A stretch of DNA of 64,000 nucleotides from positions 1 through 64,000 of the forward strand of contig CANQEV010000003.1 in NCBI GenBank assembly GCA_947595925.1, read 5' to 3'. A model generated the notes under the pieces. The model did not search any database and had not been told where the DNA came from. It saw only the letters and a program-made list of their open reading frames with translations. The stretch comes from an uncultured Acetatifactor sp. Its GTDB lineage: Bacteria; Bacillota; Clostridia; Lachnospirales; Lachnospiraceae. The position numbers and the translations under genes were made by a program. Shown in pieces: positions 29,338-33,068 of the stretch; position 1 is the first letter of the stretch, and every line of letters starts with the position of its first letter.

Positions 29338-29365
29338 TTGATTTTTTTCACAAAATGTGTATAAT
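29338..29365 (+). promoter_or_regulatory. Promoter of the repressor gene
   Basis: TTGATT (29338-29343), 16-bp spacer, TATAAT (29360-29365). The fifth operator overlaps its -10 region, which allows the repressor to control its own transcription. Confidence 0.7.
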
Positions 29366-29386
29366 AGTTCTAAAGGGGGTGTTTTA

Positions 29387-29998
29387 ATGGCAGATTTTAA
29401 AGATATGCTTAAATTTTTCAGGATAAAATACCATCTTTCCCAAAGCGAACTTGCAGACAAACTTGGTTTGTCCGCTTCAACTATCAGTATGTACGAAGTT
29501 GGTCGTCGAGAACCTGATTTTGAGACTGAAGAAAAAATTGCTGATTTTTTTAATACAGATTTGAATACACTTCGTGGCAGAGACATTGAGTCCATAACTA
29601 GGAAAGGCGTTTCCATTAAAGTCCTTGGCCGAGTTGCTGCAGGGATTCCAATCGAAGCCGTAACAGATATTATTGATACAGAAGAGATTACGGAAGATCT
29701 CGCCAAGACTGGATCTTTCTTTGGACTGCAACTTCATGGCGACTCCATGGAACCTCGAATGTGTGACGGAGATGTAGTTATTGTACGCCAACAAGATGAT
29801 GCTGAGAGCGGTGATATCGTCATTGCTATGGTAAATGGAGATGACGCCACATGCAAGCGTCTTCGTAAATATCGCGATGGGATCGAGCTGATATCCAACA
29901 ACCCCGCCTATCAGCCGATGTTCTTCTCCAACGATGAGATTCAGAGCAAACCTGTGAAAATCATCGGGAAAGTTGTGGAGTTACGAGGAAAATTTTAA
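29387..29998 (+). CDS. CI-like repressor with S24 (LexA-type) protease domain
   Basis: A 203-residue protein from ATG 29387 (GGGGGTG upstream). Residues 1-65 form an XRE helix-turn-helix; residues 75-200 form the S24 latch domain. The Ala85-Gly86 bond (GRVAAGIP) is the probable self-cleavage site and the Ser120 of GDSMEP and Lys157 form the catalytic pair. RecA-activated self-cleavage would induce the prophage, as for lambda CI. It transcribes rightward away from the Cro-like gene. Confidence 0.9.
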   Translation: MADFKDMLKFFRIKYHLSQSELADKLGLSASTISMYEVGRREPDFETEEKIADFFNTDLNTLRGRDIESITRKGVSIKVLGRVAAGIPIEAVTDIIDTEEITEDLAKTGSFFGLQLHGDSMEPRMCDGDVVIVRQQDDAESGDIVIAMVNGDDATCKRLRKYRDGIELISNNPAYQPMFFSNDEIQSKPVKIIGKVVELRGKF

Positions 29999-30027: not shown

Positions 30028-30594
30028 ATGAAAAAAATGAAGTTACCTATCGCCGCTGTTGTCGTCATTGCTGCTGTTTATTTTTTGTTCGTTCCAAAAG
30101 ATCCCTCTGTTTCGGATCGTTCCAATGTTGATCAAGACGTTTCTTCCACGCAGGTAGTTGCTTCGTCTGAATTTTCTTCCATTGATGATTATTCAGACAG
30201 CTTATCATCAAGCGAAGATCTTGATAAGTCCCTGCCTTCCGTTTATGAACCATCTGAGTCTCCTTCGGATCCAACATCGGAATATGCCTTTGCTTCTGAC
30301 CCGACTATCGAAGCAACGCCTAAACCGACTTCGGAACCGACACCTGAACCGACTCCTGAACAGACTCCGGAACCAACTTCGGAACCGACACCTGAACCGA
30401 CTTCAGAACCAACTCCAGAATCGACACCAACACTTACAGTTTATATTCTAAACACAAGTTCAATGAAAATTCATAATACTTGGTGTAGTTCTGTCAAAGA
30501 TATTAAACCTGAAAATTATCAAGAAACCACAGAAAGTATTAGCACCTTGGAAAGCCAGGGATATGTAAAATGTAAGAAAAAAGGGGATTGGTAA
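30028..30594 (+). CDS. Membrane-anchored PT-repeat protein with Ada-like C-terminal motif
   Basis: 188 residues with an N-terminal transmembrane segment (LPIAAVVVIAAVYFLFV), an Asp/Ser-rich then Pro-Thr-Glu repeat stalk (PTSEPTPEPTPEQTPEPTSEPT), and a C-terminal domain (YILNTSSMKIHNTWCSSVKDI...GYVKCKKKGDW). The last part resembles the small metal-binding fold of Ada-like repeats in surface proteins (N..S.K.FH...C..V..I). It is lysogenically expressed with the repressor, so a surface role such as superinfection exclusion is possible; this is inference. GGAGG precedes the ATG. Confidence 0.6.
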   Translation: MKKMKLPIAAVVVIAAVYFLFVPKDPSVSDRSNVDQDVSSTQVVASSEFSSIDDYSDSLSSSEDLDKSLPSVYEPSESPSDPTSEYAFASDPTIEATPKPTSEPTPEPTPEQTPEPTSEPTPEPTSEPTPESTPTLTVYILNTSSMKIHNTWCSSVKDIKPENYQETTESISTLESQGYVKCKKKGDW

Positions 30595-30701: not shown

Positions 30702-30730
30702 TTGACAAAATGACCTTTTGCATATATTAT
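30702..30730 (+). promoter_or_regulatory. Promoter of the short RNA / NYN gene
   Basis: TTGACA (30702-30707), 17-bp spacer, TATTAT (30725-30730). It starts transcription about position 30737, immediately before a structured RNA. Confidence 0.75.
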
Positions 30731-30736
30731 AAGAGT

Positions 30737-30823
30737 GTAACAAAGGTTACATGTTAATAGTGCTCTAGGTTGTACGTCTCTCAATATATGAGAATGACCG
30801 AACCCTAGGGCTTTTTTATTTTT
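30737..30823 (+). ncRNA. Short structured RNA with its own terminator upstream of NYN gene
   Basis: From the predicted transcription start: GTAAC-AAAG-GTTAC (30737-30750), then an outer stem GCTCTAGG/CCTAGGGC (30762-30769 with 30804-30811) enclosing TCTCA/TGAGA, followed by a strong T run (30812-30823). The T run makes the outer stem a Rho-independent terminator, so most transcription should end before the NYN gene at 30842. This can be a leader that controls the gene or a distinct RNA partner of the encoded protein. Confidence 0.5.
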
Positions 30824-30841
30824 CACAAAGGAGGTTTTCAG

Positions 30842-31528
30842 ATGAAAACTGCTATACTTGTCGATGGAGGTTTTTATCGCCGTCGCGCTCAAATTGTGCT
30901 TGGTGACAAAACTGCCGAAGATCGGGCCATCGAATTAGCAAATTATTGTAAACGCCATCTAAATTATCATGGAGAGCGCAATGAATTATATCGGGTATTT
31001 TACTACGATTGTCCTCCATCTGGCAAAAGAGTTTATCACCCACTTTTGCAAAAGCAAATAGACCTTTCAAAAACCGCTCTCTATTCCTGGACCATCCAGT
31101 TTTTCGATGAATTAAAGAAAAAAAGGAAATTCGCTCTTAGAATGGGAAAACTTGCTGAAGAACAGGCTTTATATACGATTCGCCCTCAAATTGTAAAAAA
31201 ACTGTGCAACGGCAGCATTGCATTTTCTGATTTACAAGAAGACGATTTTTCCTTGAAAATTGACCAAAAAGGTGTTGATATGAAGATTGGTCTAGATATT
31301 GCCTCAATGGCATATAAACACCAGGTAGATCAAATTATCCTGATTTCTGGTGATAGCGATTTTGTATCAGCTGCTAAATTGGCAAGACGAGAAGGTATCG
31401 ACTTCATTCTTGATCCACTGGGAGCTCCTATCAAGCCTGATTTATTTGAACATATTGATGGCCTTAGAACATGTGATAAGGCATTTTTGCAAAATAATCA
31501 TTTCAGAAATACAACAGCCAGCATGTGA
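30842..31528 (+). CDS. NYN-domain (LabA/DUF88-like) putative nuclease
   Basis: A 228-residue protein with the NYN/PIN-like fold. Acidic residues that would bind Mg2+ are Asp8 (ILVDGG), Asp146 (GVDMKIG), Asp152, and Asp171/Asp173 (SGDSDF). The segment DIASMAYKHQVDQIILISGDSDFVSAAKLAR is characteristic of the family, whose members are RNases or nucleotide-binding proteins. AGGAGG lies before the ATG. It follows a short terminated RNA and a promoter, and lies between the lysogeny genes and the integrase. The RNA and its neighbour could form a regulatory or defence pair. Confidence 0.85.
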   Translation: MKTAILVDGGFYRRRAQIVLGDKTAEDRAIELANYCKRHLNYHGERNELYRVFYYDCPPSGKRVYHPLLQKQIDLSKTALYSWTIQFFDELKKKRKFALRMGKLAEEQALYTIRPQIVKKLCNGSIAFSDLQEDDFSLKIDQKGVDMKIGLDIASMAYKHQVDQIILISGDSDFVSAAKLARREGIDFILDPLGAPIKPDLFEHIDGLRTCDKAFLQNNHFRNTTASM

Positions 31529-31642
31529 AAAAGTTTACTCGCGCAAACCTTCACAGGGGCTGGCCTATTACTCGAATACATGTTAGCACTCACATATATC
31601 ATTGTCAAGAATCAAAAATATGAATGAGAAACATTTAAAAAA

Positions 31643-31671
31643 CCGCCCTGGTGTTGGCGCACCAGGACGGG
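31643..31671 (+). other. Hairpin in the integrase leader
   Basis: CCTGGTG/CACCAGG (31647-31653 with 31660-31666) with flanking pairs around TTGGCG. No T run follows, so it is not a clear terminator. Between 31529 and 31784 there is no convincing gene, only this hairpin, two copies of CTCCCGGAG and the palindrome at 31737. Confidence 0.4.
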
Positions 31672-31736
31672 AAGCAATGCTCCCGGAGGAACATCACGCA
31701 CAATATGATTATACCCTCCCGGAGCGCAGAAATCAA

Positions 31737-31752
31737 GTTGCACCGGTGCAAC
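31737..31752. promoter_or_regulatory. 16-bp palindrome, copy 3
   Basis: GTTGCACCGGTGCAAC, identical to the copy in the ParB-like gene. Here it is in the non-coding leader 33 bp upstream of the integrase ATG, so it is under DNA-level rather than protein-level constraint. Confidence 0.6.
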
Positions 31753-31784
31753 TTTGCTTTTTTTCTTCAAAGGGAGGTCTTTTT

Positions 31785-33068
31785 ATGCTCATATCCTGCC
31801 CCGAATGTTCCAGAAAGGTCTCAGATAAAGCCCTTGCCTGTCCCGGATGCGGATATCCTATCGCATCTTATGTGACTGCTGCCTCGTCCTCTCCGTCTGC
31901 CTCCTGCAGTCTTGCCAGATCTTCCCAGCCTGCTGCCTCATCCATTCCTGTCATCCCCGCGGCCATTCCATCCGCCAGCGGCCGCCGGCGAAAGAAGCAT
32001 AAGAAGCTCCCAAATGGTTTTGGCAGCATTCAAAAATTGACCGGGAACCGCCAGCGCCCCTATGCGGCCTATCCGCCTACCAAGGAATTCCATCTGAACG
32101 GATCCCCGGTCCGCCAGGAGGCTTTAGGTTACTTCGAGACCTGGTACGCTGCCTACGACTCACTCAGCGAGTATAACCGCCTATCCGATCAAGAGCGTGA
32201 AGAACTGAAAAGAAAGAATGATGTGCGCTCATTTACTTTTTCTCAGATCTATGAGATGTATTACCAGGATAAGTTTAAGACGGTCCTTAGGGCGGAGCAG
32301 GAATGTATAAAGGTTAAGCGTCCCTCCTTAATGAATTCTGTCCGAGCCGCTTACAAGAACGCCTCCTCGCTGCATGACATCCCCTTCTCAACTCTTCGTC
32401 GTAAAGACTTTCAGGAAGTAGTTGATTCCTGCCCGTTAAAGTACTCCAGCAAGGAGCTTATCGTCATGCTTTTTAACCAGATGAGCAAATTTGCACTCCA
32501 AAATGACTATATCGATAAAGACTATGCCCAATTTGTCAAAATAGATGAAAAAAATGACGACGAGCAGGGACAGCCTTTCTCCGTGGAGGCAATTCGTCTC
32601 TTGTGGCAGGACAGCGAGGATCCTGTGTCCCAAATGATTCTGATCCTGATCTATTCTGGATTCCGCATCAGCGCCTTTGAGACTATGACTATTGAGGACG
32701 GGTGCTTCCGCGGCGGTGTCAAGACTTCCGCCGGCCGGAACCGCCTGGTACCGATCCACAGCGCCATTCTACCATTTATACCGGTGAATCCCTTCCTGCA
32801 AAATTTTTCCGCCTCAGCTTTTCGCAAAATTTTTTACAGAAAGCTGGATGAATTGGGTATATCTTACGCTGGGAACGCAAAGCACACGCCCCACGACTGC
32901 CGTCATACTTTCTCCTGGCTTTGCGACCGCTTCGGCGTAGATGAGACCTCTAAGCACCTGCTCATGGGCCATTCCCTTGGCGGTGATGTGGAAAGCCGGG
33001 TGTACTCCCACCGCACCCCGGAGCAGCTCAAATATGAAATTGAAAAGATCCGTCCGGACAGGAATTGA
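31785..33068 (+). CDS. int: Tyrosine integrase with N-terminal zinc ribbon
   Basis: 427 residues from ATG 31785, 7 bp after GGGAGG; a longer frame upstream covers the palindrome and lacks a ribosome site. Residues 4-23 (CPECSRKVSDKALACPGCGYPI) are a zinc ribbon, and a Ser/Pro-rich linker follows. Then come the core-binding helices and the catalytic domain, with Arg in GFRISAFE, HDCRHTF, His in GHSLGGDVE and Tyr in RVYSHRT. It should integrate and excise this prophage. Next to attR as usual. Confidence 0.92.
   Translation: MLISCPECSRKVSDKALACPGCGYPIASYVTAASSSPSASCSLARSSQPAASSIPVIPAAIPSASGRRRKKHKKLPNGFGSIQKLTGNRQRPYAAYPPTKEFHLNGSPVRQEALGYFETWYAAYDSLSEYNRLSDQEREELKRKNDVRSFTFSQIYEMYYQDKFKTVLRAEQECIKVKRPSLMNSVRAAYKNASSLHDIPFSTLRRKDFQEVVDSCPLKYSSKELIVMLFNQMSKFALQNDYIDKDYAQFVKIDEKNDDEQGQPFSVEAIRLLWQDSEDPVSQMILILIYSGFRISAFETMTIEDGCFRGGVKTSAGRNRLVPIHSAILPFIPVNPFLQNFSASAFRKIFYRKLDELGISYAGNAKHTPHDCRHTFSWLCDRFGVDETSKHLLMGHSLGGDVESRVYSHRTPEQLKYEIEKIRPDRN

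What the first reader, a model, noticed from the sequence alone, without database searches (positions are those of the whole stretch)
30702..31528. Short terminated RNA paired with a NYN-domain nuclease in the lysogeny region
Seen: a consensus promoter, then about 87 nt of RNA with two hairpins ending in a strong terminator, then a NYN-domain gene 18 nt later with a good ribosome site. A complete little RNA gene in front of a nuclease recalls RNA-antitoxin and RNA-guided arrangements, for example type III toxin-antitoxin loci, but the RNA is single-copy, not a repeat array. Inference: the RNA may regulate or complex with the protein.
Basis: partly seen in the sequence, partly recalled or inferred. 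Interest (0 to 1): 0.75.

Follow-up and report, generated by a model that had tools for sequence, protein, structure and literature searches.

The report
Conserved RNA paired with NYN nuclease
A short folded RNA sits directly in front of a NYN-type nuclease gene in this prophage, and the same pairing recurs in phages and plasmids of at least two bacterial phyla, which suggests an RNA-held toxin or phage-defence module for which no description was found in the papers searched.

Summary
The window holds a complete small RNA gene (promoter 30702-30730, RNA about 30737-30823) and, 18 nt later, a NYN gene (30842-31528). No Rfam family matches the RNA. Covariance models find it in front of relatives of this gene in Clostridia, Negativicutes, streptococcal, lactococcal and Moraxella phages and a Xanthomonas plasmid; E. 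coli and Proteus lambda-like phages carry an RNA of other sequence but the same layout. All 14 base pairs show compensatory changes. In a family sample and a phylum sample of genomes every NYN site found had the RNA directly upstream (13 of 13; 4 of 4, one site in both). Seven RNA copies lack an intact NYN gene of their own. The NYN protein keeps its fold and invariant aspartates; an integrase often follows. Best explanation (0.6): a type III-like toxin-antitoxin or superinfection-exclusion module in which the RNA restrains an RNase made by terminator read-through. It is not a member of the canonical type III families (no repeats, not ToxN). Rivals: a protein-sensed leader, or an RNA-dependent nuclease. 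RNA accumulation, binding and toxicity are untested.

The parts
30702..30730 (+). sigma70-type promoter: TTGACA 30702-30707, 17 nt, TATTAT 30725-30730
   Evidence: read; in 124 of 151 homologous loci with the hairpin a consensus-like promoter precedes it, against 31 of 151 shuffled
30735..30752 (+). 5' leader hairpin of the RNA (7 bp, loop AAAG)
   Evidence: fold; the 42-nt leader folds better than the mean of its own mononucleotide shuffles in 91 of 99 RNAs
30753..30761 (+). single-stranded linker with GUUAAUA
   Evidence: YUAAUA within 18 nt before P1 in 32 of 99 RNAs, shuffled mean 2.8
30762..30811 (+). structured RNA core: P1 30762-30769/30804-30811 (8 bp, also the terminator stem), P2 30776-30777/30797-30798, P3 30779-30782/30790-30793, apical loop with AUA, internal loop GUA (30772-30774) / GAA (30800-30802)
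   Evidence: RNAalifold consensus equals this structure, 14 of 14 pairs with compensatory change on 35 sequences; 99-row set; no Rfam match
30812..30817 (+). U tract of the intrinsic terminator, 3' end of the RNA
   Evidence: U-rich tail in the alignments
30828..30834 (+). Shine-Dalgarno sequence of the NYN gene
30842..31528 (+). NYN-domain protein, 228 aa, predicted RNase (toxin or effector)
   Evidence: Pfam PF01936 E 2.3e-10; phrog_5783 E 3.7e-85, unknown function; predicted fold matches NYN structures; D8, D146, D152, D171, D173 invariant in 27 of 27 aligned relatives
29357..29998 (+). CI/LexA-like phage repressor (HTH + S24 peptidase), context
   Evidence: Pfam and PHROGs
31602..33068 (+). 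integrase (ORF as listed; true start may lie later), context
   Evidence: phrog_1 integrase E 2.9e-22

Best explanation
A mobile two-part module in which a short structured RNA restrains a NYN-fold endoribonuclease, working like a type III toxin-antitoxin system. One promoter drives the RNA. Most transcripts end at the P1 stem and U tract and yield the free RNA; the minority that read through make the NYN mRNA, so RNA exceeds protein. The RNA, through its conserved internal loop (GUA/GAA), P2 and AUA apical loop, binds the NYN protein and keeps it inactive. When transcription stops or is taken over, for example on infection by another phage or loss of the element, the RNA decays first, the RNase is freed, and growth or phage production is blocked (superinfection exclusion or addiction). 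Shown here by sequence: the RNA gene, its structure, its linkage to the NYN gene, the conserved aspartates, the place in phage lysogeny regions. Inferred: co-transcription by read-through, RNA-protein binding, inhibition, toxicity, trigger and defence role.
Against: No data on toxicity, binding or RNA accumulation. The RNA is not repeated and the protein is not ToxN-like (defining type III features not met). Orphan RNAs may be mere remnants: a 55-nt core is a smaller target for decay than a 690-nt gene, and the E. coli O157 cases are probably one event. RNA and NYN distances correlate only moderately (r 0.38 over 91 loci). Six of 80 viral loci and the Campylobacter plasmids have no model hit and rest on hairpins seen by eye. 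A short C-terminal NYN remnant without RNA was seen in G026 (L015).
Confidence: 0.6

Rival explanations
1. Cis-acting autoregulatory leader: the RNA is an attenuator whose folded terminator is bound or cut by NYN, or by another protein, to set NYN expression. The RNA has no role of its own in trans.
For: The conserved P1 helix is itself the terminator; the gap to the NYN gene is short (median 29 nt); the RNA is mostly found in cis to NYN.
Against: No sign of a classical antiterminator: leader pairing with its own P1 arms is no better than with arms of other loci (8.81 against 8.73 sd 0.17; 8.62 against 8.65 sd 0.18). The terminating fold itself is what is conserved. Orphan RNAs with near-consensus sequence persist without NYN (L185 scores 76.4 bits), some with a consensus-like promoter by reading.
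Confidence: 0.2
2. RNA-dependent nuclease: the RNA is a required cofactor, scaffold or guide of the NYN protein, so that the complex rather than the free protein is the active effector.
For: Loop residues are conserved beyond what termination needs (A at column 14 in 97 of 97 distinct rows, GUA in 80 of 97, loop AUA letters in 89, 92 and 76 of 97); close pairing of the two genes.
Against: No array or repeats and no evident variable guide segment in the core. Orphan RNAs would then be useless.
Confidence: 0.12
3. Ordinary neighbours: a phage small RNA with an unrelated trans target that happens to sit in front of a NYN gene.
For: Prophage lysogeny regions carry small RNAs and accessory genes (general knowledge). 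In L169 the RNA stands 17 nt before a SLFN_AlbA_2 gene instead of NYN.
Against: Linkage in 13 of 13 NYN sites over a sample of 298 genera of one family and in viral loci; chance hairpin rate is 16-19% against 94%.
Confidence: 0.05

Closest known systems
AbiF-RCd22 of Clostridioides difficile prophage (Abi_2/AbiD/F toxin with RNA antitoxin, Rfam RF03085 motif)
   Same: Prophage-borne; SigA promoter, about 100-nt RNA with terminator, toxin gene downstream without own predicted promoter, co-transcribed by read-through; RNA neutralises the toxin in cis and trans (PMC12373285, abstract and section 7 read).
   Different: Toxin is of the Abi_2 family (HEPN, recalled), not NYN; RNA carries two abiF motifs; no abiF match in our RNA at E<=10.
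Type III toxin-antitoxin families ToxIN, CptIN, TenpIN
   Same: RNA gene upstream of an RNase gene, single promoter, Rho-independent terminator between them (PMC5086642, passages).
   Different: Their RNA is a tandem array of repeats, pseudoknotted in the solved complexes and processed by the toxin; here one non-repeated hairpin RNA and a NYN-fold protein.
AvcID (deaminase with RNA antitoxin AvcI)
   Same: RNA antitoxin with a non-ToxN toxin, described as type III, active against phages (PMC10511110, passages).
   Different: Toxin is a deoxycytidylate deaminase; RNA is longer (minimum functional length about 171 bases) and no terminator was predicted between RNA and toxin.
NYN-domain proteins of known structure (VPA0982, MARF1)
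   Different: No cognate small RNA gene is known to me for these (recalled, not searched).
Rex-type exclusion genes of lambdoid prophages
   Same: Same place, downstream of cI in the lysogenic region (Brookers, ev099). The Rex comparison is recalled.
   Different: Different proteins; no RNA partner known to me for RexAB (recalled).

Membership tests
Type III toxin-antitoxin (canonical ToxIN/CptIN/TenpIN) | RNA gene upstream of the toxin gene, one promoter, Rho-independent terminator between them | tested here: met
   by sequence in the window and relatives; transcription itself not tested
Type III toxin-antitoxin (canonical ToxIN/CptIN/TenpIN) | antitoxin RNA made of tandem repeats | tested here: not met
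   one core copy in the window and in the loci read; L151 has a second copy, but behind NYN
Type III toxin-antitoxin (canonical ToxIN/CptIN/TenpIN) | toxin of the ToxN/CptN/TenpN families | tested here: not met
   protein is NYN by Pfam, its only Pfam hit, and by fold
Type III toxin-antitoxin (canonical ToxIN/CptIN/TenpIN) | RNA binds and neutralises the toxin; toxin is harmful alone | not testable with these tools
   needs experiment
Type III toxin-antitoxin (canonical ToxIN/CptIN/TenpIN) | antitoxin RNA folds as a pseudoknot | not tested
   models used here contain no pseudoknots
AbiF-type RNA antitoxin systems | abiF RNA motif RF03085 | tested here: not met
   the only matches among 4227 Rfam families up to E 10 were PyrR and CRISPR-DR43, both sub-threshold
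AbiF-type RNA antitoxin systems | Abi_2 family toxin | tested here: not met
   only NYN found in Pfam
NYN-domain nucleases | NYN profile and fold | tested here: met
   PF01936 41.6 bits, cut-off 24.2; 2qip and MARF1 structures
NYN-domain nucleases | conserved acidic active-site residues | tested here: met
   D8, D146, D152, D171, D173 invariant in 27 of 27; their assignment as catalytic is recalled
NYN-domain nucleases | RNase activity | not testable with these tools
   needs assay
CRISPR-associated or guide-RNA systems | repeat array at the RNA gene | tested here: not met
   single copy, no array in the sequence read
Known anti-phage systems of PADLOC-DB 2.0.0 | full-length match to a catalogued effector | tested here: inconclusive
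   only a stretch of about 44 residues matches HEC-09 (E 8.4e-5) and a NYN model (E 8.9e-5)

The most novel reading that the evidence does not exclude
The RNA is a freestanding, selectable part of a phage-phage conflict: complete modules carry RNA plus NYN as an exclusion weapon, while elements that keep only the RNA use it as a decoy antitoxin against modules of rivals. The RNA restrains NYN by imitating its cellular target; its AGUA/GAA internal loop resembles the bulged-G (loop E) motif of the 23S rRNA sarcin-ricin loop, which some PIN-fold VapC toxins cut (recalled, not tested; the window's own RNA has UGUA). On this reading it is a new class of RNA-controlled RNase systems, with NYN partners and hairpin RNAs in four phyla (Bacillota, Pseudomonadota, and more weakly Deinococcota and Campylobacterota).
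Probability: 0.15. Interest if true: 0.92.

Novelty: new variant of a known kind. Interest (0 to 1): 0.8.

Why it matters
It adds an RNA family that is absent from Rfam 15 and supported by strong covariation, and it ties the functionally unknown PHROG 5783 NYN proteins to a partner RNA. If confirmed, RNA-restrained RNases would extend beyond ToxN and Abi_2 folds to the NYN fold, in phages and plasmids of distant bacteria. It is compact enough (about 0.8 kb) for direct tests, and E. coli phage versions exist for work in laboratory E. coli. The orphan RNAs make an RNA-only counter-defence hypothesis testable.

Tried and rejected
PyrR leader: 19 bits against a cut-off of 54, rejected. Classical attenuation with an antiterminator in the leader: no excess complementarity. 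Short-terminator false positives: in the phylum scan 12 genomes passed E<=0.01 with model R2; on reading, 6 were true RNAs and 6 were ordinary terminators of about 30-39 nt. Exact RNA consensus in viral contigs: 0 matches; degenerate patterns: 3 and 2 contigs, of which 4 are contigs already known to carry NYN and 1 (L185) is an orphan. Relatives of the SLFN_AlbA_2 protein of L169 in viral contigs: none confirmed, so a general RNA-Schlafen pairing could not be tested. Foldseek against PDB gave no match at E<=0.001 and unrelated top rows; the VIA-align second look gave the NYN structures; PDB by sequence gave nothing credible. The first RNA alignments (A1, A2) were misregistered and replaced by A3.

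Measures against my reading: 'pairs with a change on both sides' was reached by 68 of 500 shuffles, and 'further pair types' by 497 of 500. NYN-integrase distance correlation (0.22) is lower than NYN-RNA (0.33) on the same 20 loci, but the difference is small. In the genus sample 3 of 10 matches were no full NYN gene of this family: L015 is a 29-residue remnant without RNA, L016 starts at a contig end so its upstream is not held, L017 is a distant NYN protein; R2 hits none of the three. Ten of 161 upstreams fell below the hairpin threshold, among them L050, L097 and L140, which the model does find.

Rows dropped: A3 left out RNAs that I could not register by script or chose to omit (L006, L007, L024, L038, L039, L046, L049, L050 and the distant L051-L056) and duplicates. 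The 100 sources were picked mostly from loci already known to match; 98 of them gave the 99 rows of A7. In one search, 51 of 80 and, 55 of 76 neighbouring ORFs were passed on, the rest being very short or doubtful. One search merged identical upstreams and dropped loci with under 130 nt upstream. One search left out six genome-derived loci and L151. Of 222 and 199 viral relatives only the best 80 each were returned.

Papers: no NYN-RNA pair was seen in the listings of nine searches; PMC13092281 was only searched for terms, NYN 0 occurrences; PMC8040213 (candidate structured RNAs in human microbiomes) was seen in a listing only, and its supplements could not be opened here, so an unnamed earlier prediction of this RNA is not excluded.

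Full report
OBSERVATION. The RNA folds at -24.6 kcal/mol, z -3.2, 0 of 200 shuffles as good. Rfam gives only tRNAs in the whole window and nothing above threshold near the RNA. One copy was found in its own genome. The host is probably a member of Lachnospiraceae: same-genus genomes G035 and G087 share contig lengths with records titled uncultured Acetatifactor sp. (inference).

NEIGHBOURHOOD. Upstream lie a CI/LexA-like repressor (29357-29998) and a small protein (30028-30594, no Pfam or PHROG hit); downstream an integrase. The NYN protein belongs to PHROG 5783, function unknown.

THE RNA IS CONSERVED. Relatives of the NYN protein were fetched from viral contigs (6), GTDB contigs (29) and same-genus genomes (10 of 101); phage records held 15 and plasmid records 165, of which a selection was opened. 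Reading the DNA upstream showed the same RNA again and again. A registered alignment of 35 cores (A3) gave by RNAalifold exactly the structure I had assigned by hand: P1 8 bp, P2 2 bp, P3 4 bp, with compensatory change in 14 of 14 pairs. With a covariance model R1 a 99-row alignment A7 from 98 loci was made: 96.4% of cells paired, covariation score 0.73 against 0.285 in shuffles; A7 is fitted to the model and its loci were mostly known to match, so A3 is the cleaner test. Unpaired positions are conserved too: A at column 14 in 97 of 97 distinct rows, GUA in 80, AGUA in 60, GAA in 61, and the loop AUA letters in 89, 92 and 76. The 5' leader folds better than the mean of its shuffles in 91 of 99 RNAs.

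LINKAGE. In 299 genomes of the host family (298 genera) the RNA model found 15 sites in 14 genomes and the NYN protein 13 sites in 12 genomes (E<=1e-10). All 13 NYN sites lie directly behind an RNA site; one of them (G127) is a broken gene. In 398 genomes of the phylum the NYN profile found 4 sites (E<=1e-20; one is the window's own), all 4 behind an RNA. In 101 genus genomes the 7 full-length matches all have it, while 3 others are a short remnant, a fragment at a contig end and a distant NYN protein. In the first viral set (best 80 of 222 relatives) R1 found the RNA at the stereotyped place in 67 loci at E<=0.01; R2, built without them, found 7 more (L131, L138, L141, L145, L149, L154, L168; E<=0.0017); the last 6 (L095, L128, L157, L158, L162, L163) carry a hairpin followed by U on reading. 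A second scan with an E. coli phage query gave 79 loci with 45 distinct upstream sequences. In E. coli and Proteus lambda-like phages and their nearest relatives the RNA has a different sequence and three stems in a row, with 12 of 17 assigned pairs compensated on 11 sequences; RNAalifold predicts 16 of these pairs. Over all 161 distinct upstream regions a terminator hairpin of this size is present in 151, against 78 of 483 shuffles and 104 of 552 control upstreams; a sigma70-like promoter precedes it in 124 of 151 against 31 of 151 shuffled.

BREADTH. By model and named record: streptococcal Javan85 55 bits, Lactococcus Bacchus 37.5, Moraxella Mcat4 35 (R1), Xanthomonas plasmid 37 (R2), Holdemanella 20.9 bits, E 0.0016 (R2). 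Aeromonas, Spartinivicinus and Thermus plasmids score 19-21 bits, E 0.002-0.007. Campylobacter plasmids have hairpins there but no model hit, so they are the weakest part of the claim.

CONTEXT. Of 55 downstream ORFs scanned, 28 have the tyrosine-integrase domain and 9 the resolvase domain; of 51 upstream ORFs, 16 match HTH_3 and 6 the S24 peptidase (doubtful ORFs are included in the denominators). In Brookers and ev099 the module follows the CI-type repressor. On Thermus and some Campylobacter plasmids it follows large helicase or SNF2 genes, and on Thermus an N-6 methylase comes next. Such places carry exclusion and defence cargo (general knowledge). Moraxella Mcat4 differs: there the gene lies beside the terminase.

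MECHANISM. The terminator stem ends a median of 29 nt before the NYN match, so NYN should be made by read-through and the RNA in excess. Leader pairing with the P1 arms is no better than between mismatched loci, which speaks against a classical antiterminator but not against protein-sensed termination. The best reading is an RNA that binds and restrains an RNase, as in type III toxin-antitoxin systems and in AbiF-RCd22. Membership in the canonical type III families fails on repeats and on toxin family; membership in AbiF fails on RNA motif and toxin family. Works-like and is-a are thus different answers here.

LIMITS. No expression, binding or toxicity data. E-values of home-made models are rough. 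R1 was trained on some loci that recur in the test sets. Literature searching covers an open-licence library only.

Noticed in passing
L169 1501-3036 (minus orientation of the stored locus): The RNA stands 17 nt before a SLFN_AlbA_2 (Schlafen-type) gene, split into two ORFs, behind a CI-like repressor: a possible partner swap.
   Followed up: partly
L151 2433-2487 and 3445-3499: Two RNA copies flank one NYN gene; the second ends 22 nt before the integrase start.
   Followed up: partly
window 30028-30594: Small protein with a hydrophobic start and a Pro/Thr/Glu-rich stretch between CI and the RNA, no Pfam or PHROG hit; might be a second lysogenic exclusion gene.
   Followed up: no
[not shown]
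   Followed up: partly
L066 and L173: RNA sites lying near CRISPR-like repeats; L173 also has RelB- and YafQ-like small ORFs (by eye from translations).
   Followed up: no
L053, L055, L272: On Thermus and Campylobacter plasmids the NYN gene follows large helicase or SNF2 genes, on Thermus also before an N-6 DNA methylase, a defence-like arrangement.
   Followed up: no
L086 3116-3973: The E. coli region identical in DNA to the intact ev099 NYN gene is annotated in RefSeq as an incomplete ORF plus a shorter NYN ORF.
   Followed up: no
L017: A distant NYN protein of the same genus (30% identity, 322-aa frame) without the RNA: the pairing is a property of one NYN family, not of all.
   Followed up: partly
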